The notes beneath the pieces were generated by a model. The model was not told where the DNA came from, did no database searches, and was given only the letters and a program-made list of their open reading frames with translations. Shown in pieces: positions 42,285 to 55,322 of a DNA stretch of 64,000 nt; positions within the stretch are counted from its first letter, which is position 1, and each line of letters opens with the position of its first letter. The stretch comes from Lacticaseibacillus casei DSM 20011 = JCM 1134 = ATCC 393 (GTDB lineage Bacteria > Bacillota > Bacilli > Lactobacillales > Lactobacillaceae), in NCBI RefSeq assembly GCF_000829055.1, contig NZ_AP012544.1, positions 1,798,001 to 1,862,000 on the forward strand. Reading direction: 5' to 3'. Both the position numbers and the translations under genes were made by a program.

Positions 42285-43545
42285 CGCGCATTTTAGAATC
42301 AAGTTAGCCACTGTCTCAAAATTTTTTGGACAATAAAAAACATCAAGAACAGATATCCTGTATCATTGAAGTTCCTACACAAACAATGGAAGAGGATATT
42401 GTCTTGATGCAGAAACAGGATAGCACACACCGCCAAAAAGGTCAGCACTTAACATCACTCGAGCGCGGAAAAGTGGCCGGATTCCGCCAAGCTGGGAAGT
42501 CCAATCGTTGGATTGCTGCTGAAATTGGCGTCTGCCCGCAGACCATTAATAATGAAATCAAGCGAGGTACAGTAGATCAGGTCAAGAAGAGTAATGGCAA
42601 GCGCGTCTACCATCGACAATACCTGCCAGAGGCTGCTCAGGCACGTTACGAGACTGCACGCTTGAGCTGTCATCGTCCTGACAAGTTCGCCAGCGTACAG
42701 GTCTTCTTAACCTGGTACGTACAGCGAGCTAAGCAGGACAAATGGTCGCCGGATGCTTCAATCGGCTATGCCAAGCGACACAAGCTGTTTACTCCTGAAG
42801 AGCTTGTTTGTGCCTCGACTTTGTACCAGTACATTGACGACCAACGCCTAGAGATTCGAAATATCGACCTGTTGGAGAAGACTAAGCGGAAGACCTCTCA
42901 CCAGCACCACACCAAGGCTAAGCGCCTGGCTGGCCGCAGTATCGAGGAACGGCCTAAGGTCGTTGAACGACGCAGGCAGTTCGGTCACTGGGAGATGGAT
43001 ACCATTGTCGGTAAACGCAATGGCAAGGAGAGCGTCATCTTGACTCTGATTGAGCGCAAGACCCGTTGCCAACTTCTCCGCTTGATCGAAGGACGAGATG
43101 CAGACTCTGTGAGCTATGCATTGCGTGGAATCAAGCGCGAATGGGGAGCTTGCATCAAGACCATCACAGCCGACAACGGACCCGAGTTCACCGCCTTAAA
43201 TACTGCTTTTGCTGGGACGGAAACTGAGATCTTCTACGCCCATCCTTACACGTCCTGCGACCGTGGCACCAACGAGGCACATAACCGGATGATCCGCCAG
43301 GACTTCCCTAAGGGCATGTCCCTAGATGACATTAGCCCTAGTCAAGTGCAGGCCACGCAAGACCGCTTGAATCAGTTGCCTCGCAAACAACAGGGCTACT
43401 GCACACCCCAGCAAAACTTTGAGGCCGAAGCTCGGCGCGTTCGCCGCATGGCCCAGTAGTCTCTCTAGCGCCACAACTTCTATTTGATAACGGCCTGTTC
43501 TGGGATTGTCCTCAACGACTGGCTAACTTGTTCTTGCAATTTACG
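42285..43545 (+). mobile_element. IS30-family insertion sequence, copy 2
   Basis: 1261 bp, same length and ends as copy 1 but inverted. It is flanked by a 13-bp target duplication GATAAAAGGTTCT at 42272-42284 and 43546-43558. Both copies keep matched duplications, so the 10-kb segment between them has not been inverted by recombination since insertion. Confidence 0.93.
42407..43459 (+). CDS. IS30-family transposase
   Basis: 350 residues, intact, with the helix-turn-helix GFRQAGKSNRWIAAEIGVCPQTINNEI and the catalytic D-D-E set described for copy 1. Near identity between the two copies points to recent transposition within this lineage. The start at 42407 has AGAGGA upstream. Confidence 0.93.
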   Translation: MQKQDSTHRQKGQHLTSLERGKVAGFRQAGKSNRWIAAEIGVCPQTINNEIKRGTVDQVKKSNGKRVYHRQYLPEAAQARYETARLSCHRPDKFASVQVFLTWYVQRAKQDKWSPDASIGYAKRHKLFTPEELVCASTLYQYIDDQRLEIRNIDLLEKTKRKTSHQHHTKAKRLAGRSIEERPKVVERRRQFGHWEMDTIVGKRNGKESVILTLIERKTRCQLLRLIEGRDADSVSYALRGIKREWGACIKTITADNGPEFTALNTAFAGTETEIFYAHPYTSCDRGTNEAHNRMIRQDFPKGMSLDDISPSQVQATQDRLNQLPRKQQGYCTPQQNFEAEARRVRRMAQ

Positions 43546-43864
43546 GATAAAAGGTTCTACAGATCTACTTAATCTTTAAGTGCATGGCATGGGCTCCCTT
43601 TTTGCCCTGTAGCAACTTATAGATCGTTACGAGAAGTTACAGTGCTGAAGTGCCAAGGCGGAGCAATCGTAGGCCAGATGGGCTCAGTGGTGACATTGTT
43701 GTTGGTGGGGCGCTCTTTGCCCCACCTACAACAAGGCCGAGCTTAGAGCCTCTGCCGCTTTTGCAGAGGCTCTAAGTCGTGCCCACTCCTCTAGCTTCGC
43801 GGTCGCCAGCCCCAATCTGGCCGGAGATAGCGGAGTTTGGCACGGCAATATGTTTCTCAGCCTG
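43546..43864. other. 319-bp gene-free stretch after IS30 copy 2
   Basis: After the target duplication there is about 90 bases without recognised features, then structured element A (43650-43843), which ends 21 bases before the thioesterase stop codon. No gene seen. Confidence 0.6.
43650..43843 (+). ncRNA. structured intergenic element, family S, copy A
   Basis: About 194 bp closed by GTGCCAA/TTGGCAC. Inside are a stem GGCCAGAT/ATCTGGCC, the block CAGTGGTGA, hairpin 1 at 43696-43734 (TTGTTGT/ACAACAA with GGTGGGG/CCCCACC), the block AAGGCCGA, hairpin 2 at 43742-43776 (CTTAGAG.CTCTGC/GCAGAGGCTCTAAG) and the block GTCGTGCCCAC. No open frame fits. Copies B (54153) and C (46748) keep the blocks while the stems change in step, which argues for a folded RNA. 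It has a roughly 15-base insertion near 43786-43806 relative to B and C. Confidence 0.6.
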
Positions 43865-44341
43865 CTAATCCAATGGCACCTCGCCAAAGCTGGCATTAAT
43901 CTTCCGATAGTCCGCACGCCGCTCATCGTAACCAGCTAACAACCGCTTTTCAAAATCCGATTCCGCTTCAAGCGCTGGCAGCGGGCCGTCTTCTTTGTGG
44001 CGCGCTACGAACGTTGCAAAAGCCGTACCGACCTGAAACCGTTCGCCGGTCGCCAGATGTTCGCCAATTAAATGAATAAACACTTCCAGGGACCGGTGAC
44101 CCACGCCGCTGACCATACACTTAATTATCAGTGCATCCCCTAAAGTGACCGGTGCATCCAGCCGCACCATGTCAAGCGAACCGGTCGCCAACCCGCGACG
44201 GCCTAATCGCTGCGCCGCAATCGAACTGACATCATCAATCCAGGTAAAAATCTGGCCGCCAAACAGTGTCTTGTGGGCATTTAACATGCCGGGAAAGACC
44301 CGATAACTCGAAACTGCCAAAGTGTCGCGCATTTTAACCAT
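43865..44341 (-). CDS. acyl-CoA thioesterase, hotdog fold (YkhA/BFIT type)
   Basis: Hydrolyses acyl-CoA to free acid and CoA. The 158-residue protein has the family pattern VFPGMLNAHKTLFGGQIFTWIDDVSSIAAQRLG, where the N-x-x-x-T-x-FGG-x-x-x-x-x-D segment forms the active-site helix. It continues with SLDMVRLDAPVTLGDALIIKCMVSGVGHRSLEV. The ATG at 44341 follows the helD stop by a few bases and shares its transcript; GGGGG lies just upstream. Chain-length preference is unknown. Confidence 0.88.
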   Translation of the reverse strand: MVKMRDTLAVSSYRVFPGMLNAHKTLFGGQIFTWIDDVSSIAAQRLGRRGLATGSLDMVRLDAPVTLGDALIIKCMVSGVGHRSLEVFIHLIGEHLATGERFQVGTAFATFVARHKEDGPLPALEAESDFEKRLLAGYDERRADYRKINASFGEVPLD

Positions 44342-44346
44342 CAACT

Positions 44347-46638
44347 TTACCCCCGCTCATACAGATCTGCCGGAACCTTATCCAACAACGGTGTGACATC
44401 CGGGCTGGTAAGCATCGTCAGCCGGTGCATGGCCCGGGATGCAACCGTGTATAGTAATTCCCGCTCGTCTTCTTCGTGGTAGTTCGCCGCGTTGACCTGC
44501 CAAAGAACCACGGCATCGAATTCAAGCCCCTTAGCCAGGAAGCTCGGTACCACAATCACCCCGGCTGCTAACCGCTGATTTTCGGACTTGATGAGCGTCA
44601 CTTTAATGCCCGCCGCTTTCATCTGCTCGTAAATCGCCTCGGCATCCTCGAGCGTTTTGGCAATGACCGCGGTTGTCTGCTTGGCTTCATTGTTTACTTT
44701 TAGCTGTGCTTCAAGCGCCGTCATTAGCCCTGCTTCATCAGGCCGCACGACCAACTTAGGTAGCGGTCCTTGGCGGTTGAAGGCCACGATTTTCTGCCCC
44801 GAGGTCAAAATGGCTTTGGTGAAGTCCGTCACTTGCTTAGTTGACCGATAACTTTGCGTCAATTGCACGACCCTGGTCTTCTCCGGATCAAACAACTTGC
44901 TGGTTTCGTTGATCAGCGTCCGTGAGTCATCCTTGGTGAAAATGGCCTGATTCAGATCGCCTAACAACGTAAACTTGGCGCGCGGGAAACTGTCCTTGAG
45001 ATAAGCCAACTGATACGGCGTGTAATCCTGAATTTCATCGACAAACACATACCGCATCTCGCGCTCGCCATGCCGGCCGGTGATCAGGTCGTAAAGATGC
45101 AGGTACGGCGTTGCGTCGGCCATTGGCAACTGCCGCTGCTTGAACACGTTGATGAAATGATCGACTTCCGCCTGCCATTCGTCTTCAGAAATGCCTTCTG
45201 CCGCTAAATCATAAATCGCCGGCACTTCTCGCAAAAAGCTGACGTACTGACCGCGAATGTTGATGAACCGATTCCGGACAATATCCTGCTGAATCTCGTC
45301 AAAGCCCTTCATTACCAACTGCCGCGCAAAGAAGCGATATTCATCATCGCTATTTTTAAATTCTTTCGGGCCGTCTTGTTGCATCGAGCGAATCGTTTCG
45401 TCGCTTAAATTCTGCACCGCTTCTTGAACCCACTGTGCTTTGGTTTCAGATTCAATTTTACGATTCAGCATTTTGATCAGCCGCTCTTTGGTGGCGTTCA
45501 GGCGATTGCCCATATGATAATTTTCGTTGTAACTATAAAAAATCTCACGGATACGCTTGCGGGAAAAGAACACTTCGCCGCGGAAACGAATATCGCGGAA
45601 ACGCAAGCCGGAACGTTCCAGGCTGGTAGCGTATGTTTTAGCTGCGTTGAAGAAATCCAGGCTACCTTTGACGCGGGCAATTTTCTTTTGCACCGGCGTC
45701 AGTTGCTGCTCAAACTGGGAAAAGAGATTTTGGACGTCAATGTGCGGCAACCGGCGCGTGACATATTGGTAGTAAGTGAACTGCACCATGTTCTGCTCGC
45801 CTAATTCCGGCAAAACGTTGCTGATGTAGTCGGAGAAAAGCTGGTTCGGGCTGAACATGATTACCTGGCTGCTGGTCAGATTGCCACGGTAGCGATAAAG
45901 CAGATACGCAACCCGCTGCAAGACGGCGCTGGTTTTACCGGAACCGGCAGCACCTTGCACAAACAGCAAATCGGCTTTGGTGTCGCGTATGATCTGGTTT
46001 TGTTCGCGCTGAATAGTTGTGACAATCGTCTTCATCTGCGTGTCGGACTTCTCGCCCAGAACTTCCAGCAACATTTGGTCACCGATGGTCTCGGTGGTGT
46101 CAAACATGGTCTGAATCCGACCATTTTTAATCACAAATTGCCGTTTCAAAGAGACGTTGACCTGCTGCGGCCCGTCCGGCGTTTGATAAGTGACTTTGCC
46201 TAAGCCGCCATCATAATAGATGGAACTGATCGGCGCCCGCCAGTCGTAAATGAGAAACTTGCCCGCCTCATTGGTAAACGAACCGAAACCAATGTAAATC
46301 GTTTCCGGCTTTTCCTGGCCTTCCTGAAAATCAATCCGGGCAAAGTACGGGTTGCCTGCCAATCGTTTTACAGTCGCAAGTTGCTGGGCGCTTTGCTTCC
46401 ATGCATTGGTGCGCTCATCAAGCACGCGTTGCTGTTGTTGGATCGAAGCAGCGGTTTCAATGGTTTCCGCATCATTACTGAAGTTGAGGGAAAAATCATT
46501 GAAGAAGTTGTCGCTAATGCTTTTTTCTTCAGTTTTGGTCTTGGCCATCTCTTTTGAAAGACGAACCTCGGCACTGGAGAGCTCCTTCATGATGCCATCT
46601 AAATGTTGCTGCTCTTTAGCCTGCTCATTCTCGACCAC
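44347..46638 (-). CDS. helD: RNA polymerase-recycling helicase HelD (UvrD/IV type)
   Basis: A 763-residue superfamily 1 ATPase. In Bacillus, HelD removes stalled or inactive RNA polymerase from DNA and inserts arms into its channels. The N-terminal coiled-coil arm (about 1-90, rich in K/E/Q) is followed by Walker A VQGAAGSGKTSAVLQRVAYLLYRYR near residue 228. Walker B YVFVDEIQDYTPYQ is near 536 and the C-terminal motor half has VVPSFLAKGLEFDAVVLWQV. Structured element C lies about 110 bases upstream of the start. The thioesterase gene is co-transcribed downstream. Confidence 0.9.
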   Translation of the reverse strand: MVENEQAKEQQHLDGIMKELSSAEVRLSKEMAKTKTEEKSISDNFFNDFSLNFSNDAETIETAASIQQQQRVLDERTNAWKQSAQQLATVKRLAGNPYFARIDFQEGQEKPETIYIGFGSFTNEAGKFLIYDWRAPISSIYYDGGLGKVTYQTPDGPQQVNVSLKRQFVIKNGRIQTMFDTTETIGDQMLLEVLGEKSDTQMKTIVTTIQREQNQIIRDTKADLLFVQGAAGSGKTSAVLQRVAYLLYRYRGNLTSSQVIMFSPNQLFSDYISNVLPELGEQNMVQFTYYQYVTRRLPHIDVQNLFSQFEQQLTPVQKKIARVKGSLDFFNAAKTYATSLERSGLRFRDIRFRGEVFFSRKRIREIFYSYNENYHMGNRLNATKERLIKMLNRKIESETKAQWVQEAVQNLSDETIRSMQQDGPKEFKNSDDEYRFFARQLVMKGFDEIQQDIVRNRFINIRGQYVSFLREVPAIYDLAAEGISEDEWQAEVDHFINVFKQRQLPMADATPYLHLYDLITGRHGEREMRYVFVDEIQDYTPYQLAYLKDSFPRAKFTLLGDLNQAIFTKDDSRTLINETSKLFDPEKTRVVQLTQSYRSTKQVTDFTKAILTSGQKIVAFNRQGPLPKLVVRPDEAGLMTALEAQLKVNNEAKQTTAVIAKTLEDAEAIYEQMKAAGIKVTLIKSENQRLAAGVIVVPSFLAKGLEFDAVVLWQVNAANYHEEDERELLYTVASRAMHRLTMLTSPDVTPLLDKVPADLYERG

Positions 46639-46955
46639 GCCATCATCTCCTTAACGGTTATCAAATAATCGTTATAACATCTTATCACTTATGAGCCGGC
46701 GCCGCAAAAGCGACTATAACTACTTTAACTGAGCGACTCCCGATACGCCGAGCTGGCTCCGCGGCGATTGGGATGGAACGTGGTGGGCACGACTTTGAGC
46801 CTCAGCAAAACCGGCTGAGTCTCAAAGTTCGGCCTTGTACTACGCTGGGAGAACCGCCCAGCTAGTACAATCTCACCACTGATCCCATCGCCGCTCCGCC
46901 CGCTCGGATTCTATCATCCAAAAACCATTTCAACTTTTGATTTATTGTTTCTTCT
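46639..46955. other. 317-bp gene-free stretch upstream of helD
   Basis: Contains structured element C (46748-46907) and about 110 bases of AT-rich DNA next to helD that should hold its promoter. No gene seen. Confidence 0.55.
46748..46907 (-). ncRNA. structured intergenic element, family S, copy C (inverted)
   Basis: About 160 bp, reading on the minus strand. The outer stem is CCGAGC/GCTCGG and the next GGCGAT/ATCGCC with GGGAT/ATCCC. Hairpin 1 (46835-46870) pairs TTGTACTA with TAGTACAA and CTGGG with CCCAG. Hairpin 2 is CTTTGAG.CTCAGC/GCTGAGGCTCAAAG. The blocks GCGGAGC, CAGTGGTGA, AAGGCCGA and GTCGTGCCCACCACGTTCCA match copies A and B. Stem sequences differ from A and B by paired changes. 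It lies upstream of helD on the same strand. Confidence 0.6.
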
Positions 46956-47153
46956 CTATTTCCGCTTTCTCCGCAACAACGGTGTCCACGCTTCGAGTAC
47001 ATACCCCACTGCCATACCGATGGCAACGCCTAATAAAATGCGTTTGAACGGCAAGCTGACTAATAGGCCGATTAAAACGCAAGTACCGACAATGACGGCG
47101 CGGCGATTGAAGAAAGATTTTCCTTGACGTGGCGGCTTTTGATTTTGTATCAT
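46956..47153 (-). CDS. small membrane protein
   Basis: A 65-residue basic protein with one or two hydrophobic segments (residues about 21-34 and 40-54) between arginine/lysine-rich ends (..RRKRK at the C terminus). It resembles the small DUF2273-like integral proteins of lactobacilli in size and glycine pattern (ILLGVAIGMAVGYVLEAW), but I cannot assign a family. The ATG at 47153 has AAAGGA upstream. It diverges from the antiporter gene. Confidence 0.6.
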   Translation of the reverse strand: MIQNQKPPRQGKSFFNRRAVIVGTCVLIGLLVSLPFKRILLGVAIGMAVGYVLEAWTPLLRRKRK

Positions 47154-47224
47154 ACGCATTCCTTTCATTTATCCATACTTTTCGTTACGATTGACTCATC
47201 CATTATCGCTGATCGGAGGTCATT

Positions 47225-49054
47225 ATGGAATCTATTTCACTTTTAATTGTCTTGACAGCTGCTCTGGTAACCCCGCTGTTCATGGCGCATTTTCACATTA
47301 ATAGTATCCCGACTGCGGTAGCCGAGATTCTAGTTGGTATTGTATTAGGCAAAAGCCTCTTGGGGTGGGTGCACACCGGCGGCAACGTGCAATCGTTGAG
47401 TGAACTCGGGGTCACCATCCTGATTTTCCTATCCGGGATGGAAATCGATTTCTCCTTATTCAAGCCTCAGCCTAAGACGACAAAAGGACCGCAGCCAGCC
47501 AATCCCGTGATACTTGCTGCAGTGGGATTTGCGACGGTAGTGCTGCTCAGCCTTGGCTTTAGCTACCTGCTGCAATTGATTCATTTCTTTAGCTATCCGA
47601 TTTTTGCAACCATCCTTTTTACAACGATCGCACTCGGCGTTGTCATTGCGGCGTTAAAAGAAAAAGAACTGCTGCACCAGCCGCTTGGCCAAACGATTTT
47701 GTTGATTGCAGCTTTAGGCGAAGTGATTCCTCTTATTAGCTTGACGATATACTCCGCCGTGAATGGCAGTAGCGACAGCAATCTTTGGCTGCTGCTGTTA
47801 CTGTTGCTGGCAGCTTTGGTGTTGTTGGCGCGGTTCAAACGGGTCTACAGCTTTTTTGCAGCGATCGATAAAAGCACCACGCAATTAGACATTCGCCTGG
47901 CCTTCTTCTTAGTCTTCACCTTAGTCACGATTGCTTCACAAGTCGGGGCTGAATCTATTTTAGGGGCTTTTCTTGCCGGGATGGTGATGAAGCTGCTCGG
48001 CCCGCGACAGGAAACCCAAGATAAGCTGACATCCATTGGCTACGGGTTCTTCATCCCGATTTTCTTCATCGTCACCGGCGCCAATCTGAATTTAAAGGCC
48101 TTAATTGCCGATCCTAAAAGCCTCTCATTGATTCCCTTAGTTCTAGTCGGTTTCTTTATCACCAAAATTGGCCTCTATCCGGTATTGCGCCGCCGTTTCA
48201 AGGTATCAAATGCATTGGCCGGTACTTTCTTATCAAGTGCTACCATTACGTTGGTGATCCCGACGTTAACCGTTGGCCGCAACCTTGGCATTGTGACGGA
48301 ACAGCAATCCGGTGCCTTCACGCTGGCGGCTGTGATCGCCTGTGTCAGTGGACCCATTCTTTTCAATCGGCTTTTCAAACCGGAACCGGAAACGTTCAAG
48401 AAGACGCGCGTCACTTTTATCGGCGGCAATCTGTTGACTGTCCCAATTGCCCAACATCTAAGTTCGGACCGATATGACGTCCAACTGTTTACCGATAAGG
48501 CGGAAAACTTCCGCACCTATAATTCTGAAGTCGCCATCTCTCTAGCCGATTATCAGGAAGATGCACTGAAGGCGGCTGGCGCTTTTGACTGTGACATCAT
48601 CGTGCTCGGTGATTTCGACGCGGACACCAACTACGCACTTGCCAAAATGGCACTCGCCCAAAAGGTGCCGCGTATCATTACCCGGTTTGCCGCCAAGGAT
48701 GCTACCACTGATCGCTATGATCGCTTGCGGGACGAAGGTGTCGAAGTCTTCAATGCGCTTGACGCCAACATCGCCCTTCTCCGCAGCCTGATCGAAACGC
48801 CGTCGACGCTGCAGATTCTAGACGATACGATTGCCGGAATTTACGAAGTGACCATCCGCAACTCGCGCTTTGCTGGTCTCGAACTCAAGAACCTGCCATT
48901 CATCGACGACATCACCGTCAGCCAGATCTACCGCAACAAAAAGTTCATCGCTCCGCACGGCGACACCCAGCTACACCTTGGCGATCACCTCATCTTCTCT
49001 GGCGACAAACACTTGATCCGCAACATTCGGACGCAGGTTGAAAAGCTTAACTAA
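47225..49054 (+). CDS. CPA2 cation:proton antiporter with TrkA-N/TrkA-C domains
   Basis: A 609-residue membrane protein. Residues 1-380 form a Na/H-exchanger-type transport domain with about 12 helices (NSIPTAVAEILVGIVLGKSLL, SELGVTILIFLSGMEIDFSLF, AESILGAFLAGMVMKLLG). Residues about 395-510 are a Rossmann RCK/TrkA-N domain and about 525-609 a TrkA-C domain (FAGLELKNLPFIDDITVSQIYRNKKFI). KefB-like members exchange K or Na for protons under nucleotide control; the ion here is not certain. The C-terminal part has slightly variable NAD-binding glycines (FIGGNLLTVPIAQHL). The ATG has GGAGGTCATT upstream. Confidence 0.9.
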   Translation: MESISLLIVLTAALVTPLFMAHFHINSIPTAVAEILVGIVLGKSLLGWVHTGGNVQSLSELGVTILIFLSGMEIDFSLFKPQPKTTKGPQPANPVILAAVGFATVVLLSLGFSYLLQLIHFFSYPIFATILFTTIALGVVIAALKEKELLHQPLGQTILLIAALGEVIPLISLTIYSAVNGSSDSNLWLLLLLLLAALVLLARFKRVYSFFAAIDKSTTQLDIRLAFFLVFTLVTIASQVGAESILGAFLAGMVMKLLGPRQETQDKLTSIGYGFFIPIFFIVTGANLNLKALIADPKSLSLIPLVLVGFFITKIGLYPVLRRRFKVSNALAGTFLSSATITLVIPTLTVGRNLGIVTEQQSGAFTLAAVIACVSGPILFNRLFKPEPETFKKTRVTFIGGNLLTVPIAQHLSSDRYDVQLFTDKAENFRTYNSEVAISLADYQEDALKAAGAFDCDIIVLGDFDADTNYALAKMALAQKVPRIITRFAAKDATTDRYDRLRDEGVEVFNALDANIALLRSLIETPSTLQILDDTIAGIYEVTIRNSRFAGLELKNLPFIDDITVSQIYRNKKFIAPHGDTQLHLGDHLIFSGDKHLIRNIRTQVEKLN

Positions 49055-49370
49055 ATCGTTGAGGCACTATTTTTCTTGAACGATATAGAAAAGCTTAGGC
49101 AATAAGTTCCTTGCCGTGCCAAACTCCGCAATCTCCGCTTCGGCACTCCTATTTTAACAACCTTAACAAGTTTCCTCCGGCGAACGAAAAGTAAACAGAC
49201 GCGCAAGATCTGCCATTGTTCGTGTGCACATGTTGGTTTTTATGTTGCAACAGTGAATTGTGAACCAACCTAAAGGCGCATACCTTTTGCCATCCGACAA
49301 CCATTTTCAATCAGGCTTTCGCTTCCTGACGTGGTACAATGAGATTATTCTAAGAAAAAAAGGTGATCAA
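49055..49370. other. 316-bp gene-free stretch
   Basis: Holds the collapsed structured repeat D (49116-49146). Near the right end a TACAAT -10-like box (49335-49340) probably belongs to the iminopeptidase promoter. No gene seen. Confidence 0.5.
49116..49146. repeat. family S remnant, copy D (terminal stem only)
   Basis: A 31-bp palindrome-like sequence made of the two ends of elements A and B fused together: GTGCCGAAGCGGAG joined to ATTGCGGAGTTTGGCAC (read on the minus strand). The whole interior is missing, as in internally deleted repeats. Confidence 0.6.
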
Positions 49371-50276
49371 ATGAAACAAGGAACAACGATCCTGACCTTA
49401 GACAACGGGTACCACCTGTGGACCAACACGCAAGGTGAAGGCGATATTCATCTGCTGTGCTTGCACGGCGGCCCTGGTGGCACTCACGAATACTGGGAGA
49501 ATTTTGGCGAGGAACTCGCTGATCTCGGTGTTCAAGTGCATATGTACGATCAGCTCGGATCGTTTTATTCGGATCAGCCTGACTATTCCGATCCGGAAAT
49601 TGCCAAAAAGTACCTCACCACGGATTATTTCTTGGGTGAAGTCGAAGAAGTGCGCAAGAAGCTGGGCTTGGACCATTTTTACTTAATCGGTCAAAGCTGG
49701 GGCGGTGCACTGACTCAATTGTATGCGTTGAAATACGGCCAGCATCTTAAAGGTGCCATCATTTCATCCATGGTGGATAACATCAATGAATACGTGGAGC
49801 ACATCAACTTGGTCCGCGAAGAGGCGCTGCCGCCTTCAGCCGTTAAATACATGAAGAAAATCGAAAAAGCCGGCAAATGGGATGATCCGCAGTATCAAAA
49901 ATATGTCGATGTCCTCAACCGAGGGTACGTTGATCGCAAGCAGCCGCCTGCTATTTCCCATTTAATCAGCACCATGGCAACGCCGGTTTATAATGCTTTC
50001 CAAGGCGATAACGAATTCGTTGTCACCGGCAAGTTGAAGGACTGGGACATCAGCGATCAAATCCACAACATCAAGGTACCGACGCTGCTGACATTTGGCG
50101 AACACGAAACCATGCCGCTAAAAGCCGCGCAACGCATGGCCGAAGTCATTCCGCATGCACGTCTGGTCACCACTCCTAATGGCGGCCACCATCACATGAT
50201 CGACAATGCGCCGGTTTACTTTAAGCACCTGAAGCAGTTCATTTCCGATGTTGAAAATGGCACTTTCAATGACTAG
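49371..50276 (+). CDS. pepI: proline iminopeptidase
   Basis: Releases N-terminal proline from peptides; belongs to the alpha/beta-hydrolase S33 family. The 301-residue protein has the oxyanion motif LCLHGGPGGTHEYW near residue 31, which is nearly diagnostic for prolyl aminopeptidases. The nucleophile elbow GQSWGG is near 107, and the catalytic acid/histidine lie in TFGEHETMP and NGGHHHMI near 241 and 268. Start ATG at 49371 has AAAGGTGAT upstream; the frame is open to 49260 without a signal. Like pepD it serves peptide use. A terminator lies just downstream. Confidence 0.92.
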   Translation: MKQGTTILTLDNGYHLWTNTQGEGDIHLLCLHGGPGGTHEYWENFGEELADLGVQVHMYDQLGSFYSDQPDYSDPEIAKKYLTTDYFLGEVEEVRKKLGLDHFYLIGQSWGGALTQLYALKYGQHLKGAIISSMVDNINEYVEHINLVREEALPPSAVKYMKKIEKAGKWDDPQYQKYVDVLNRGYVDRKQPPAISHLISTMATPVYNAFQGDNEFVVTGKLKDWDISDQIHNIKVPTLLTFGEHETMPLKAAQRMAEVIPHARLVTTPNGGHHHMIDNAPVYFKHLKQFISDVENGTFND

Positions 50277-50280
50277 TTGT

Positions 50281-50315
50281 AAAAAGCGGTTTGCCATCTA
50301 CGGCACCGCTTTTTA
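50281..50315 (+). terminator. terminator after pepI
   Basis: AAAAAGCGGT paired with ACCGCTTTTT, with inner TTGCC/GGCA pairing, four bases after the stop. Confidence 0.8.
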
Positions 50316-50333
50316 TATAAAGGAGCCTTCCGA

Positions 50334-50794
50334 TGGCCTATACCGTTGATTTTAAAACCGTCAGCACGACTGGCCTCGAAAGTTCGCCTGTCGCCCAATC
50401 GTTGGCTGGTTTACGCGCCAATGAAGCGCGCTACATTTGGAACAAATTCAAAGTGCCTTATGTGACGTATCCGATTGCTGAAAAGTCGGACAGTTTTGCT
50501 TGGCTGCAAACAATCTTAGCCGAACGGGCGTTGACTTTTGCGGCCAAGCCGCTGGAAATCTGTGACTTGGCATTGCCCCGCATGCGCTGGGTCGAAGTCT
50601 ATTATCAAGACGGACTTGTTGTTAATGTCATGTATTCGTTAACGGATCCAAAAAAACGGGCAGTCGGCTTCAAACTCAGTGAAGGCATGGCTGTTCCCGA
50701 TGAACTCATCGGTAAGTTCAAGTTTGCCCGCCAAAAATCAAAGCTTGCCGGCACGATTCGGGGTTCCTTTTTCGTAATTAGAGGTAATTACTGA
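50334..50794 (+). CDS. conserved hypothetical protein
   Basis: A 153-residue cytoplasmic protein that I do not recognise. It has no membrane segment; the middle (ALPRMRWVEVYYQDGLVVNVMYSLTDPKKRAVGFKL) suggests beta strands, and the N-terminal third is helical. The ATG has AAAGGAGCC upstream, directly behind the pepI terminator, so it relies on read-through or a promoter hidden in the terminator region. Followed by a convergent terminator. Confidence 0.7.
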
Positions 50795-50827
50795 TTTGTC
50801 GCCAATTGCTTCACAATCATTAAATGC

Positions 50828-50887
50828 AAAAAAACGCTTGCTGCCAGTAGCTTGAAAATTCAAGCTGCTTGGACAGCAAGCGTTTTT
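50828..50887. terminator. bidirectional terminator with shared inner module
   Basis: Outer stem AAAACGCTTGCTG with its complement; the inner part AGCTTGAA-N2-TTCAAGCT then GCTTGG is almost the same as in the terminator at 62933. It lies between convergent genes and ends in TTTTTAATTG. Confidence 0.85.
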
Positions 50888-50894
50888 AATTGTG

Positions 50895-52250
50895 TCACGG
50901 CACAAAGACAGACACAATCAGCTGCAGATTGAGGAACGTGATCAACCCAGTCAGCAAATACCCGACCCAGCGGACTCCCGATGAATTGACGTGATCTCCC
51001 ATCAAATTGCGCCGATCGGTTAAGGCGACCAATGGAAAGAGCGTAAACGGCAGCGCGATGCTTAAAGCCACCTGTGCGTAAACAATCACTTGTTCAAAGT
51101 TATGCTCGCTAAATCCCATGATGAAGCCGATGATCATGATTGGAATCAAGGTCACTGCCCATGTCAGCAAGCGTCGTTCCCACAGTGGCATCTGAATGTT
51201 AAGGTAGCCTTCCATCACAATCTGCCCGGCTAAGGTGCTAGCAATCGAGCTAATTAATCCGGTAATCAGTAAGGCAAACGCGAACAGGGTGCTCATGATC
51301 GGACTGGCAAGACCGCCGACAATGGCCGGATTTTTCAAACCGTTATACACACCTTGAAATGCCGTCACGTGGCCACCAACGCCATAAAACAGCGTTGCAC
51401 CTAACACCAGCAACAACGCATTGATCAAGAACGCCGCCACGAGATGCACGTTGGAGTCCCACTTGCCAAACCGCAGCGCCTCGGTCACCTGCGCCGGAAT
51501 ATGTTCATCGTACCTGCGACTTTGCGCTAGCGAGGAATGCAGGTAAATATTGTGCAGCATAATCGTCGCGCCCATAATTCCCAGGCTAAGCACCAGCATC
51601 CCATGATTCGTTAAAATCTCCCTATGCGGTACAAAACCACCAACGATCCCGCCGACTGATGGATGTGCCCGCAGCACTTCAATGCCGAAAATAATGCCCA
51701 CCGTCAAAATCGAGACCAACACGATCAGTTCAATGCGCCGAATGCCAAAACGCAAGAAGAACAAAACAACCAGCACATCGGCAATTGTCAGCAACATACC
51801 CCACATCAAAGGCAGGCCGAACAGCAACTTCAGCGCAATGGCAGTCCCCACAACGCCGGTCATATCCGTCGCCATCATCGCCGCTTCATTGATCAGCCAC
51901 AGGCAAATCCGCGCCCATTTTGGCACAAAGGCGGCAATCGCCTGCGCCAGATCCAGCCGCGCGACAACCCCGAGTTTGATTGACAGACTCTGCATAAACA
52001 TCGCAACTAAAATCGTCATCAACAACACTGACAGCAACGCATAACGATACTTACTGCCGCCTTCCAACGCCGTCAGCCAGTTTCCCGGATCCATGTAGCC
52101 AACCGCCACCAGCGCACCGGGACCGCTATAAGCCAGAAACTTTTGGAAAAAAGAAGTTTCGTAAACGCCCGGCACCTGCACACTACGATTAATGTCATCT
52201 AGACTGCGCTTGGCCTGTTGCGCCCGCAGTCGGTCATCTTGTTTCATCAT
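50895..52250 (-). CDS. mntH: Nramp-family manganese/divalent metal transporter
   Basis: Proton-coupled importer of Mn(II) and possibly Fe(II). The 451-residue protein has about 11 helices. Helix 1 carries SGPGALVAVGYMDPGNWLT with the metal-binding DPGN, and helix 6 the conserved LGIMGATIMLHNIYLHSSL with the MxH-type motif. The start at 52250 (or the adjacent ATG at 52247) has GCGGAGG upstream and lies inside the end of hemH, a 17-base overlap, so the two are translationally coupled. Lactobacilli rely heavily on manganese, and several mntH paralogues per genome are common. Confidence 0.92.
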   Translation of the reverse strand: MMKQDDRLRAQQAKRSLDDINRSVQVPGVYETSFFQKFLAYSGPGALVAVGYMDPGNWLTALEGGSKYRYALLSVLLMTILVAMFMQSLSIKLGVVARLDLAQAIAAFVPKWARICLWLINEAAMMATDMTGVVGTAIALKLLFGLPLMWGMLLTIADVLVVLFFLRFGIRRIELIVLVSILTVGIIFGIEVLRAHPSVGGIVGGFVPHREILTNHGMLVLSLGIMGATIMLHNIYLHSSLAQSRRYDEHIPAQVTEALRFGKWDSNVHLVAAFLINALLLVLGATLFYGVGGHVTAFQGVYNGLKNPAIVGGLASPIMSTLFAFALLITGLISSIASTLAGQIVMEGYLNIQMPLWERRLLTWAVTLIPIMIIGFIMGFSEHNFEQVIVYAQVALSIALPFTLFPLVALTDRRNLMGDHVNSSGVRWVGYLLTGLITFLNLQLIVSVFVP

Positions 52251-53202
52251 CTTGGGCCTCCGCTGCAACTTTTTCCTTTGCAAGCGATGCCAGTATGTCA
52301 CAAAACGGTGCACACCCATTCATCGGTCGCACTGATTTAAAGACTTTGCCGCCATTGGCCCGAAATGTCTGGTAGTTTTGGACGTCATTTTCTTCCAAGG
52401 TCTCCAGACAATCTGCCACAAAGCTCGGCGTGGTCACCAGTACCCGCCGCTTGCCCAACGCCGCTAACGCCATCAAACGGTTGCGCAAATAAGGTTTTAA
52501 CCACGGGACCGGGCCAAATTTGGACTGGTAACACATTTCGACCTTCTCCTGTGGTACTTTCTTTAAATAGCGTTTAACGCCTGCAGTCGTGGCTTCACAG
52601 GCTTGCTGATAAGGATCACCGTGGCGCACCATGGATGTTGGAATCCCGTGGTAACTCAGGATCACGGTGTCATAGTCATCTTGGCTGTAGGCGTCGTCCA
52701 GTTGCTGCGCCAGCAATTGCAAATAAGCCGGTTGATCATAGAATTGATCAATGACCAGCGTCTTAACCCCGGACGCTGCCACTTTGTCCAAAATGGTCTT
52801 CGTCGTGCTTTGCGTATACTCGGGAAACAACGGAATGACCACAATCGGATGATCCCCGCGCGCCGCCATATTCTGCAACGTCTCGCCAATGGGGTATTCA
52901 CCGCCATAAGTCATCGCCATTTGAACATCCCAATCCGGCAACTTCTTTCGCAAACGATCGCGTGTCACCTGCGTATAGGCAATCAACGGTGATCCGGCTT
53001 TGGTCCATTCATGCTGATAAAAGGTCGCTGATCGCCAACTGCGAAAAGGCAGAATGAAACCGCGTAAAATCGGTTGCCACAACATTTTAGGCATCGTGAT
53101 GACATTCTGATCACTTAAGAATTCCTGCAAATACCGGCGCACATCCCGCGTACTCGGCGAAACCGGCGAACCCAGATTTACAATTAACAACCCTGTTGCC
53201 AT
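52234..53202 (-). CDS. hemH: ferrochelatase (coproporphyrin type)
   Basis: Inserts iron into a porphyrin; in Firmicutes the substrate is usually coproporphyrin III (CpfC). The 322-residue protein shows the N-terminal LLIVNLGSPVSPSTRDVRRYLQEFL, MTYGGEYPIGETLQNM, and the catalytic histidine in VILSYHGIPTSMVRHGDPY near residue 180. C-terminal TPSFVADCLETLEEN carries the conserved glutamate. No other heme gene is in the window and lactobacilli lack the pathway, so it may act on imported porphyrin or handle metal. The ATG at 53202 has GGGGG upstream. Overlap with mntH suggests a shared metal-related role. Confidence 0.9.
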   Translation of the reverse strand: MATGLLIVNLGSPVSPSTRDVRRYLQEFLSDQNVITMPKMLWQPILRGFILPFRSWRSATFYQHEWTKAGSPLIAYTQVTRDRLRKKLPDWDVQMAMTYGGEYPIGETLQNMAARGDHPIVVIPLFPEYTQSTTKTILDKVAASGVKTLVIDQFYDQPAYLQLLAQQLDDAYSQDDYDTVILSYHGIPTSMVRHGDPYQQACEATTAGVKRYLKKVPQEKVEMCYQSKFGPVPWLKPYLRNRLMALAALGKRRVLVTTPSFVADCLETLEENDVQNYQTFRANGGKVFKSVRPMNGCAPFCDILASLAKEKVAAEAQDDETR

Positions 53203-53362
53203 TTTACTGCCCCCATCATGCGTCAAAATCATAAATTAAGAATAACACAGTGCGCGTTCTTCTGAGGGCGTTTTCTTGCCTATAACCATTCGTTCAAAGC
53301 TAACCTCCTCGTGTTTCTATGCTAAACTATCTTTAGAAGTAAACTTTCGAGGAGGCAGCAGG

Positions 53363-54028
53363 ATGGCTACGAAGGGTATTACCGTTTATCTGGTGCGTCA
53401 CGGCCAAACATGGTTCAATCATTTCAATAAAATGCAAGGTTGGTGCGATTCACCACTGACCGAAAACGGAATCAAAGACGGCACTAACACTGGCATTATT
53501 TTGCGCAATGTCGCATTTACCCATGCTTATTGCAGTGACACGATGCGGGCAACGCGAACAGCTGATTTGATTTTAAGCAAGAATCTAACTGGCAAGATTC
53601 CGCTGACAGTTACGCCATTTTTCCGGGAGCAGTTTTACGGCTATTTTGAAGGCGAGGATTCCGGCCAAACCTGGTACATGGTCGGCTTTCCGCATGGGGC
53701 AAAGACGTATCCCGAAATTCTGGAACAATATGGCGTCGATGCCTCAAAGGATTTCATGCACGATGCCGATCCATTCCATGAAGCCGAAGACGCGCGGACT
53801 TACTGGACCCGGCTTATGAAAGGCTTCCGCCAGTTGCGGTCCGAAAACAAGGAAGGCGACAAGGTACTCATGGTCAGCCACGGCACCACTATCCGCAGCA
53901 TTGTCGACAAGTTCGGCAAAAACGACGGCTTCGTGGTCACCGACTCGCCGCGTAATGGGTCGATTAGCAAGATTCTGCTGACCGACACGGGAATTAAAAT
54001 CTTGAGTTATAACGAGTTTGAGGCTTGA
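53363..54028 (+). CDS. histidine phosphatase superfamily protein (GpmB-like)
   Basis: A 221-residue phosphatase or mutase with the phosphohistidine motif VYLVRHGQTWFNHFNKMQGW (catalytic H near residue 14) and the second histidine in VLMVSHGTTIRSI near 168. Insertions between the motifs (GEDSGQTWYMVGFPHGAKTYPEILEQYG) are longer than in glycolytic Gpm and typical of lactobacillus paralogues annotated as phosphoglycerate mutase, so the substrate is uncertain. The start at 53363 has GAGGAGG; the frame opens back to 53276. Confidence 0.85.
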   Translation: MATKGITVYLVRHGQTWFNHFNKMQGWCDSPLTENGIKDGTNTGIILRNVAFTHAYCSDTMRATRTADLILSKNLTGKIPLTVTPFFREQFYGYFEGEDSGQTWYMVGFPHGAKTYPEILEQYGVDASKDFMHDADPFHEAEDARTYWTRLMKGFRQLRSENKEGDKVLMVSHGTTIRSIVDKFGKNDGFVVTDSPRNGSISKILLTDTGIKILSYNEFEA

Positions 54029-54075
54029 TTGTTTTTCAGTAACGGAGTTTGCCTTGATTTACACTTATCAGCACG

Positions 54076-54115
54076 AGACACATCAATTTCCAGTATTGTT
54101 TAAATTGATGTGTCT
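54076..54115 (+). terminator. hairpin after the phosphatase gene
   Basis: AGACACATCAATTT and its exact complement, 12-base loop. There is no T run, so it may be a 3'-end stabiliser or a decayed terminator. Confidence 0.5.
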
Positions 54116-54152
54116 TGTACTAGAAGATAATATGTTGAATTATTAATGCACA

Positions 54153-54334
54153 GTGCCAATGCGGAGCAATCGGAGGCGGTTTGGGGCTCAGTGGTGACAT
54201 TGTTGTTGGTGGGGCGGATTTTGCCCCGCCTACAACAAGGGCCGAGCTTAGAGACTCTGCCGGGTTTGCAGAGGCTCTAAGTCGTGCCCACCACGTTCCA
54301 GCCCCAAACCGCCGGAGATTGCGCAGTTTGGCAC
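54153..54334 (+). ncRNA. structured intergenic element, family S, copy B
   Basis: About 182 bp and the most regular copy. The closing stem is GTGCCAA/TTGGCAC. The second stem GGCGGTTTGGGGCT/AGCCCCAAACCGCC is a perfect 14 bp. GTGGTG/CACCAC pairing follows, then hairpin 1 (54200-54238; TTGTTGT/ACAACAA, GGTGGGGC/GCCCCGCC) and hairpin 2 (CTTAGAG.CTCTGC/GCAGAGGCTCTAAG). Blocks GCGGAGC, CAGTGGTGA, GGCCGA, GTCGTGCCCACCACGTTCCA are shared with A and C. It contains no open frame. Confidence 0.65.
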
Positions 54335-54356
54335 GACACGGAACATCCTAACATTC

Positions 54357-54396
54357 AAAAAGACCACGCACGTCAAAATTGACTGCGTGGTCTTTT
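54357..54396. terminator. terminator after rhaD, bidirectional
   Basis: AAAAAGACCACGCA paired with TGCGTGGTCTTTT. Confidence 0.85.
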
Positions 54397-54428
54397 CACG
54401 TTTCAACTGGCAAACATACTAGTTACGA

Positions 54429-55322
54429 CTAGTGTACCAATTCCTTTTCCTTAATCAACGAATCGCCGTGGATGAATTCCGGATTCGGGGTTAAGTCAAA
54501 GCGTTGTGCCAATTGCTCCAGGTTTTCATCGGTAATCTCGTTGACGAACTTGCCGCCTTGCGCCTGGATTGCGGTGTAGATGGTTGCGGCCTTTTCAATA
54601 GTTTCAATCAAGCCATAGGTTTCATCAATGGAATCGCCTGCGCCGAAGATACCGTGTAATGGCCACAAAACGATGCGGTAGGTGACCATTTTTTCAGCGG
54701 TTGCCTGACCGATTTCATTCGTGCCCGGGGTCATGTATGGCAAAACGCCGACACCTTCAGGGAAGACAACAATCGATTCAGCCTGCATCTTCCAGAAGAT
54801 CCGGCTGAAGAGCTTCTCTTTCCATGGCAACGTGAAGGTCATGGCAATCGTGTTGGTTGGATGGCAATGCATGACAACGCGCTGGTTAGGATCCTTCTTG
54901 AGCCGCTGGATGTGAGTCATCAAATGTGCCGGGAACTCACTGGTTGGCTGGCCGCCATCGGAAAAGCCCCACAATAAGTCAACACTGTGGCCGTCTTCGG
55001 CGATGCGAACAAGCCCTGTGTCACTTTCCGGGAAGTCCTTAACATTCTTGAAGTAGCGACCAGTGCCGGTTACCAAGAAGTATTGGCCGGCCAATTCGCT
55101 GGCATCGAACTTGATCGGGATGTTGCGCTTCACTTCATGCACATCACCATACTGACTAACTTCCTGTTCGGTCAACCGATAGCTGACATTGCCGCCGTTA
55201 CGCTCGTCCCAGCCATGTTGATAAAGGTTCCAGGTCACCTTTTGCATTTGTTGAACAAATGGTGAATCAATAAACGCCTGCGTATATTCGGGATTCAAGA
55301 AATCCTTTTTTGAATCTGCCAT
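54429..55322 (-). CDS. rhaD: rhamnulose-1-phosphate aldolase
   Basis: Zinc-dependent class II aldolase that splits L-rhamnulose 1-phosphate to dihydroxyacetone phosphate and L-lactaldehyde. The 297-residue protein has GGNVSYRL near residue 43, the zinc ligands in [13 protein letters not shown] near 150, the catalytic glutamate region in [25 protein letters not shown], and a third histidine in [11 protein letters not shown] near 220. No kinase, isomerase or rhamnose regulator is adjacent here, so it is an isolated gene in the window. A CcpA-type site lies upstream, fitting catabolite repression. The ATG has AAGGAACG upstream. Confidence 0.92.

What the first reader, a model, noticed from the sequence alone, without database searches (positions are those of the whole stretch)
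43650..54334. Family S: recurring intergenic elements with compensatory changes in several stems
Three elements (A 43650-43843 plus strand, B 54153-54334 plus, C 46748-46907 minus) share short blocks in fixed order: GCGGAGC, CAGTGGTGA, AAGGCCGA or AAGGGCCGA, and GTCGTGCCCAC. The stems between them differ by paired changes. Outer stem: GTGCCAA/TTGGCAC in A and B, CCGAGC/GCTCGG in C. Second stem: GGCCAGAT/ATCTGGCC in A, GGCGGTTT/AAACCGCC in B, GGCGAT/ATCGCC in C. Hairpin 1: TTGTTGT/ACAACAA in A and B, TTGTACTA/TAGTACAA in C. Hairpin 2: CTTAGAG/CTCTAAG in A and B, CTTTGAG/CTCAAAG in C, and CTCTGC/GCAGAG against CTCAGC/GCTGAG. Covariation at four separate stems is strong evidence that the RNA fold is selected. 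None has an open frame. It could be a small RNA family spread by duplication, or a structured mobile repeat. Structured RNA families of Lactobacillales are catalogued (for example Lacto-rpoB, Lacto-usp), but I cannot tell whether this is a known one.
Basis: partly seen in the sequence, partly recalled or inferred. Interest (0 to 1): 0.88.

Follow-up and report, generated by a model that had tools for sequence, protein, structure and literature searches.

The report
Mobile folded element replacing gene terminators
These three repeats belong to an apparently undescribed family of strongly folded mobile elements, spread through the chromosomes of many lactobacilli, whose complete copies sit where related species have the small hairpins that end transcription; how they move is unknown.

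Summary
A, B and C are 3 of 40 copies in this genome. The core folds as a three-way junction with strong covariation in two sequence-only alignments: 34 of 45 pairs in Lacticaseibacillus, 36 of 44 in other genera, 0 of 500 shuffles as good. The covariance model hits 77 of 251 sampled Lactobacillaceae genomes, 14 of 40 genera. No Rfam family matches it; close relatives were not found in plasmids or viral contigs.

The complete unit is about 370-390 bp. At six sites where one species has a full unit and a relative does not, the relative has a terminator-like hairpin in the gap; two swaps are exact on both sides, one of the six is ambiguous. Five units tested have no flanking direct repeat. A 98% identical unit lies elsewhere in the sister species. 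Hairpin modules also differ at conserved sites.

Reading: a mobile structured element that replaces, and probably serves as, an intrinsic terminator. The mover is unknown; this genome shows no Y1-transposase or reverse-transcriptase domain. Transcription could not be tested.

The parts
43650..43843 (+). Element A: frame plus type I core, long-linker variant; between an IS30-like transposase gene (+) and a thioesterase gene (-), convergent
   Evidence: (model hit at G000:C1:1841672-1841823); occupied in L. zeae with another second stem
46748..46907 (-). Element C: type I core in a different outer frame, upstream of a UvrD-like helicase gene on the same strand
   Evidence: (G000:C1:1844759-1844895); absent from the orthologous site of L. 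zeae, where no terminator is evident
54153..54334 (+). Element B: frame plus type I core, short linker; between a histidine-phosphatase gene (+) and a class II aldolase-type gene (-), convergent
   Evidence: (G000:C1:1852175-1852314)
54175..54182 (+). B, second stem, 5' arm GGCGGTTT
   Evidence: Pairs with 54306-54313; pairs change on both sides in A2 (helix 1)
54306..54313 (+). B, second stem, 3' arm AAACCGCC
   Evidence: As above
54187..54191 (+). B, conserved internal loop, 5' side CTCAG
   Evidence: TCAG invariant in A2 and A5
54294..54301 (+). B, conserved internal loop, 3' side CGTTCCAG
   Evidence: Mostly invariant columns in A2 and A5
54200..54238 (+). B, hairpin 1 (7 bp, U.U mismatch, upper stem)
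   Evidence: helix 3
54247..54281 (+). B, hairpin 2 (7 bp, A.G mismatch, upper stem)
   Evidence: helix 4
54077..54114 (+). Terminator-like hairpin upstream of B (GACACATCAATTT...AAATTGATGTGTC)
   Evidence: Read; a hairpin at this position is common in other copies with other sequence. The simple terminator scan did not list it
54356..54397 (+). Second terminator-like hairpin on the other side of B (AAAAAGACCACGCA...TGCGTGGTCTTTT)
   Evidence: Read; not listed by the scan

Best explanation
A, B and C are copies, A and B without the outer ends, of a non-coding, strongly folded mobile element of Lactobacillaceae chromosomes. The complete form is about 370-390 bp: a terminal inverted repeat that forms a stem, a variable terminator-like hairpin, and a frame holding a conserved three-way-junction core. 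It spreads by taking the place of the stem-loop of an intrinsic terminator. Because it is itself a giant hairpin usually followed by T's, it probably goes on terminating transcription, in both directions between convergent genes, so terminators are safe landing sites. Shown here: fold, family, presence/absence at orthologous sites, and terminator hairpins at the unoccupied sites. Inferred: that the unit terminates transcription, and that an unidentified activity which recognises hairpins exchanges whole units and single hairpin modules.
For: 40 copies in this genome, 77 of 251 family genomes. Covariation in two independent sets. L038: a 385-bp unit stands between GACAATAAC and TTTTGGTTG where L. 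zeae and L. chiayiensis both have a 28-bp hairpin, junctions identical, so the plain hairpin is the older state. L359: unit in L. chiayiensis, 21-bp hairpin here, exact but for one shared G. L032, L031 and L354: relatives have 37, 43 and 66 bp with a terminator hairpin. Five of the six G000 copies with both ends by pattern are followed at once by TTTT. A unit 98% identical to L038's lies on another contig of L. zeae. No direct repeat at five units. No Y1 or RT domain in this genome or in G005 and G022.
Against: Only 6 of the 40 G000 copies show both ends by pattern; A, B, C and most others lack at least one end, and C entered a site with no evident terminator. At L352 the gap in this genome is 144 bp and its hairpin resembles the element's own, so it may be a remnant. 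Enrichment between convergent genes is not significant against window gaps, and in tandem contexts 12 copies lie with and 6 against the genes. Not every full unit is followed by a T-run (L041, L366). Termination was not measured. Some exchange could reflect recombination with strains not sampled.
Confidence: 0.6

Rival explanations
1. An ordinary MITE: a non-autonomous DNA transposon with terminal inverted repeats, moved by a transposase not identified here, that prefers hairpin targets, the old hairpin being lost in or after insertion.
For: Terminal inverted repeats GAGGCTGRGTCATAATT...AATTATGRCYCAGYCTC, 98% identical unit at two places, orthologous unoccupied sites.
Against: No direct repeat at five units. 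The core is about 60% G+C in this genome. Among fetched loci all 45 end-like matches lie near a frame, none at an IS; no transposase recurs beside copies. Loss of the old hairpin at exactly its base in separate events needs a special reason.
Confidence: 0.25
2. A regulatory RNA family: each copy is transcribed and acts as an sRNA or as a 3' or 5' UTR element; dispersal is by duplication.
For: Covarying three-way junction with an invariant internal loop and conserved mismatches in two independent sets; G.U exceeds A.C (32 to 15 in A2, 46 to 20 in A5).
Against: G.U is rare (1.7-2.8%). Core type, hairpins and even orientation differ at orthologous sites, and the core can be missing (L035, L362, L363). 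No promoter-like signal above shuffles around the window copies. No consistent neighbour genes. A role as terminator RNA would be compatible with the best explanation.
Confidence: 0.15
3. The paired changes come from DNA: intramolecular correction of imperfect palindromes, or conversion between copies of hairpin modules, not from selection on a folded RNA.
For: Few G.U or A.C intermediates. Second stem and hairpin 1 differ while hairpin 2 between the stem arms is identical (L016 vs L. chiayiensis). The two halves of the 2-bp step are tightly linked (p 0.0005), the nearby second stem is not (p 0.95).
Against: The U.U mismatch of hairpin 1 and the A.G mismatch of hairpin 2 persist while the stems around them change; correction should erase them. 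G.U exceeds A.C on one strand. Hairpin 2 is partly linked with the 2-bp step (p 0.001) and hairpin 1 (p 0.02). May act together with the best explanation.
Confidence: 0.3
4. A REPIN/RAYT-like or retron-like element moved as single-stranded DNA by a Y1 transposase or copied by a reverse transcriptase.
For: Head-to-head doublets in other genera, 37 of 39 neighbouring pairs; retron-Eco5 is reported to replace a 34-bp palindrome (PMC6868368, passages).
Against: Y1_Tnp in 9 of 21 carriers and 4 of 9 non-carriers; RVT_1 in 7 of 21 and 4 of 9; neither found in this genome, G005 (74 copies) or G022 (49).
Confidence: 0.05

Closest known systems
SPRITE (S. [quoted passage not shown]
   Same: Interspersed non-coding repeat that resembles a terminator, ends AAAA/TTTT, enriched at 3' ends of genes
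   Different: Simple 18-bp hairpin; no easily comparable empty site was found by its authors, so replacement of a terminator was not reported in the passages read; this element is 370-390 bp with a branched core
BOX elements of S. pneumoniae, PMC3049150, passages read
   Same: Modular, highly base-paired, intergenic, variable module content
   Different: BOX is reported to have TIR and to cause target duplications; none was found at five units here. Sequence relation to BOX was not tested
REPIN/RAYT (recalled)
   Same: Inverted doublets, extragenic, chromosomal
   Different: Subunits of about 130-190 nt instead of short REPs; no Y1 transposase in several rich carriers
Retron-Eco5 (Ec107), PMC6868368, passages read
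   Same: A structured element found in place of a palindromic intergenic sequence
   Different: Retrons need a reverse transcriptase; none detected here
Lactobacillales RNA motifs such as Lacto-rpoB, Lacto-usp (PMC2864571, passages read)
   Same: Structured elements of Lactobacillales
   Different: No match at gathering score in the window or relatives

Membership tests
Rfam 15 families (4227 models) | score at or above the gathering threshold | tested here: not met
   Window 0 matches; 20 loci 0; 20 further loci 1 match, a T-box outside the element in L171; relaxed scan of the B region gave only weak matches far below gathering
MITE | terminal inverted repeats | tested here: met
   Six G000 copies, 10-16 of 17 end positions paired; most copies lack one or both ends
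MITE | target site duplication | tested here: not met
   No direct repeat at 5 of 5 units
MITE | ends shared with an autonomous IS | tested here: inconclusive
   45 end-like matches in fetched loci all near a frame; whole genomes were not searched for the ends
REPIN/RAYT | inverted doublets | tested here: met
   37 of 39 neighbouring pairs within 600 bp head-to-head in other genera; in G000 mostly single
REPIN/RAYT | Y1 (RAYT) transposase in the genome | tested here: not met
   0 in G000, G005, G022, G042; 13 of 30 genus genomes have one, unrelated to the element
Retron | reverse transcriptase | tested here: not met
   0 in G000, G005, G022
Intrinsic terminator | stem followed by a T-tract at a gene's 3' end | tested here: inconclusive
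   Five of six full units in G000 followed by TTTT, position where relatives have terminators; the shorter forms lack the outer stem
Intrinsic terminator | terminates transcription in cells | not testable with these tools
   No transcript data available
BOX | boxA/boxB/boxC sequence modules | not tested
   No BOX model or sequence was compared

The most novel reading that the evidence does not exclude
A mobile element that moves by hairpin-for-hairpin exchange without a dedicated transposase: replication or repair machinery stalled at a terminator stem-loop copies another stem-loop in its place. The same process would swap single hairpin modules between copies, invert units in place, and create perfectly paired changes without selection on RNA.
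Probability: 0.2. Interest if true: 0.92.

Novelty: new variant of a known kind. Interest (0 to 1): 0.74.

Why it matters
A high-copy structured family across a large bacterial family used in food, with no Rfam model, changes the annotation of many intergenic regions and gene 3' ends. If exchange of terminator hairpins is the rule, it defines a target choice that spares the host and a mode of movement that known bacterial transposases do not obviously explain. Sites that are plain terminators in one species and 385-bp units in the next make both the termination function and the exchange mechanism directly testable. It also warns that compensatory changes in repeats may come from DNA exchange and not only from selection on RNA.

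Tried and rejected
Rfam at a relaxed E-value gave weak hits far below gathering scores. A neighbour gene that might move the element was sought by clustering 1325 predicted proteins from fetched loci; among the 25 largest clusters printed none looked like a transposase. An autonomous copy was sought at a right-end-only fragment (L040): no internal transposase. Promoter- and terminator-like sites in 43400-54500 are no more frequent than in shuffles. Convergent contexts are not significantly enriched over window gaps of 100 bp or more (17 of 37 against 8 of 29, Fisher p 0.20). RAYT and reverse-transcriptase dependence were tested and disfavoured. Literature: nine searches listed no title on such repeats in lactobacilli; only openly licensed PMC papers are covered. 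Passages of six papers were seen. PMC2267715 lists an L. johnsonii stem-loop family (Lac-1) that was not compared; PMC11109978 reports 250 mobile/repeat candidates (its main text does not name lactobacilli) and PMC8040213 (listing only) thousands of structured candidates, so an unnamed earlier detection cannot be excluded.

Rows dropped before counts: A2 holds 43 hand-chosen rows of those printed (24 own, 19 from relatives; type II cores, chance pattern hits and some own copies left out). A5 holds 38 of the 128 matches. One search used all but five of those 128 (five of the weakest). One search covers 39 loci of G000, so at least two of the 40 model hits (C1:1676242, C1:2535328) were never read, and L035, with the core deleted, is among the 39. 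Flanks of four G000 copies were searched in relatives (L024, L031, L032, L038); L024 was occupied in L. zeae. The output (23 pairs) was cut; five pairs were reprinted. Alignments A3 and A4 are fitted to the model, so the G.U counts on them (165 to 66 and 62 to 28) lean to it; quoted figures come from A2 and A5. At least one of the 17 tRNA predictions looks spurious. The allele reading was crude (hairpin 1 of L011, L024 and L025 was read one step off).
Full report
Observation. Folding energies beat all 200 shuffles each, z -7.0, -10.3 and -8.6. No ORF of 80 aa or more overlaps them. Rfam 15 gives no match in the window.

Extent in this genome. B as a DNA query gives 51 matches, 29 of them aligned over at least the core, the rest mostly pairs of end-only matches. 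Ten such places were read: nine share the outer frame but carry a second core (type II: AACAACA...TGTTGTT and GGCGACTTTGAG...CTCAAAGCGCC) and one (L035) has the frame with the core deleted. A covariance model from 43 copies (R1) finds 40 copies at E <= 1e-3, 29 of them above 100 bits; A, B and C are the ones in the window.

Fold. Frame stems with purine loops, a second stem, a conserved internal loop CTCAG/CGTTCCAG, a variable 2-bp step plus GTG/CAC, hairpin 1 (7 bp, mismatch or bulge, upper stem), and hairpin 2 with a basal GGCCGA/TCGTGCC stem, 7 bp, an A.G mismatch and a variable top. In A2 (sequence-only, 43 copies) 95.6% of 1908 cells pair, 34 of 45 pairs change on both sides, score 0.422 against 0.124 shuffled and at most 0.090 slid. 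In A5 (sequence-only, 38 copies from other genera) RNAalifold finds the same architecture on its own; 36 of 44 pairs change on both sides, 0.600 against 0.170 shuffled and at most 0.160 slid.

RNA or DNA. In A2 and A5 Watson-Crick pairs make up 94.0% and 93.1% of cells, G.U 1.7% and 2.8%, A.C 0.8% and 1.2%. Seventeen predicted tRNAs in the same loci have 21 G.U of 364 pairs, 5.8%. The roughly 2:1 excess of G.U over A.C favours the stated strand as the folded one; the rarity of G.U leaves room for a DNA-level or two-strand constraint. This is inference.

Distribution. DNA query: 15 of 41 genomes, all in the genus. R1: 21 of 30 genus genomes, up to 74 matches; 77 of 251 family genomes, 14 of 40 genera; in an order-wide sample 8 of 246, all in this family (large samples use stricter filters). 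The same pattern finds nothing in viral contigs, and the B core nothing in plasmids by blastn; both tests see close relatives only. The window's species is not given; closeness to L. zeae suggests L. casei (inference).

Arrangement. In other genera neighbouring copies within 600 bp are head-to-head in 37 of 39 cases, the other two in tandem. Members of 24 pairs examined are 55-83% identical. In this genome, by a simple ORF caller, the gene upstream of the element points at it in 30 of 38 cases; contexts are 17 convergent, 18 tandem (12 with, 6 against the element), 2 divergent and 2 unresolved. For C the caller seems to have missed a short gene upstream, so its divergent label is doubtful. Against window gaps of 100 bp or more (8 convergent, 16 tandem, 5 divergent) the convergent share is not significant.

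Full unit. Six G000 copies match both ends by pattern, 360-394 bp, 10-16 of 17 end positions paired; five are followed at once by TTTT, L041 is not. Further full units were read in L. zeae, L. chiayiensis, G042 and G022; not each is followed by a T-run.

Mobility. Flanks of four copies were sought in relatives: L024 is occupied in L. zeae, the other three are not. At L038 the 385-bp unit stands between GACAATAAC and TTTTGGTTG; L. zeae and L. chiayiensis have the 28-bp hairpin ACCCGCTGCGC[T/G]TAATTGCGTAACGGGT there, so the plain hairpin is the older state. At L032 and L031 L. zeae has 37 and 43 bp with a terminator hairpin; other species also have terminator hairpins in these gaps. Reading the other way, units of L. 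zeae (L354, L352) and L. chiayiensis (L359) were compared with this genome: L359 is matched by a 21-bp hairpin, exact but for one shared G; L354 by 66 bp with a terminator hairpin; L352 by 144 bp whose hairpin resembles the element's own upstream hairpin and may be a remnant. No direct repeat flanks five units. The L038 unit is 98% identical to a unit on another contig of L. zeae. A simple terminator also stands at the L004 site of L. chiayiensis. C is absent in L. zeae at a site with no evident terminator.

Exchange of modules. Twenty-one of 39 G000 copies have both flanks in one fetched locus of L. zeae or L. chiayiensis. Among those aligned, the frame and flanks are kept while the inside differs: L033 and L039 have type II here and type I in L. 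zeae; L005, L007, L022, L023, L027 and L029 differ in hairpins 1 and 2. At A the second stem is GGCCAGAT/ATCTGGCC here and GGCGGTTT/AAACCGCC in L. zeae. At L016 against L. chiayiensis the second stem and hairpin 1 differ while hairpin 2 is identical. At L006/L150 and L019/L353 the unit is inverted. L002, L003, L028 and, as far as printed, L013 keep the same core in L. zeae; L016 differs there by one base in it. In 29 copies the two halves of the 2-bp step are linked (p 0.0005), hairpin 2 is partly linked to the step (p 0.001) and to hairpin 1 (p 0.02), and the second stem is independent of all (p 0.61 or more).

Who moves it. Y1-transposase domains occur in 9 of 21 carriers and 4 of 9 non-carriers of the genus, reverse transcriptases in 7 of 21 and 4 of 9; this genome and the rich carriers G005 and G022 have neither at E <= 1e-5. 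No transposase stands out among proteins near copies. The mover is unknown.

Comparison. It works like BOX in being modular and folded and like SPRITE in its terminator-like ends (PMC3049150, passages). It shares inverted doublets with REPINs (recalled) but fails their enzyme test. Retron-Eco5 replaced a 34-bp palindrome (PMC6868368, passages) but needs a reverse transcriptase. It lacks the target duplication of a MITE. I file it under no named family: a new family of structured interspersed elements with an unusual target and exchange.

Judgement. Fold and family: near certain. Mobility: very likely. Replacement of terminator hairpins: likely (a terminator-like hairpin in six of six unoccupied sites of full units, two exact, one ambiguous). 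Terminator function and mechanism: inferred.

Noticed in passing
L352:176-291, L359:697-830, L370:9235-9475, L372:9184-9317, L004 about 36-289: A second repeat of about 120-130 bp (GTGAGCGTGAGCCAGCCCGGTT...) recurs near several sites, sometimes twice in a row; not characterised.
   Followed up: no
window 42326-43459: IS30-like transposase gene (HTH_38; rve just under its cut-off) ends about 190 bp before element A; A's site is occupied in L. zeae too, so the IS need not have brought it.
   Followed up: partly
L035, L362, L363: Copies with the frame but the core deleted (100-104 bp between the frame ends), in this genome and in L. zeae.
   Followed up: partly
L142, L143, L145, L146, L147, L154, L157, L160, L166, L327: A frame of 81-146 codons in ten loci clusters together; it seems to cross the element on the other strand and is probably a by-product of conserved sequence.
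   Followed up: no
L040 (G000:C1:1957432-1957466): Right frame end plus GTGCCAAACC directly before it: a collapsed element remnant between two genes.
   Followed up: partly
copies, for example L038 and L366: The terminator-like hairpin inside the full unit is itself hypervariable yet well paired (15-20 bp), like the inner hairpins.
   Followed up: partly
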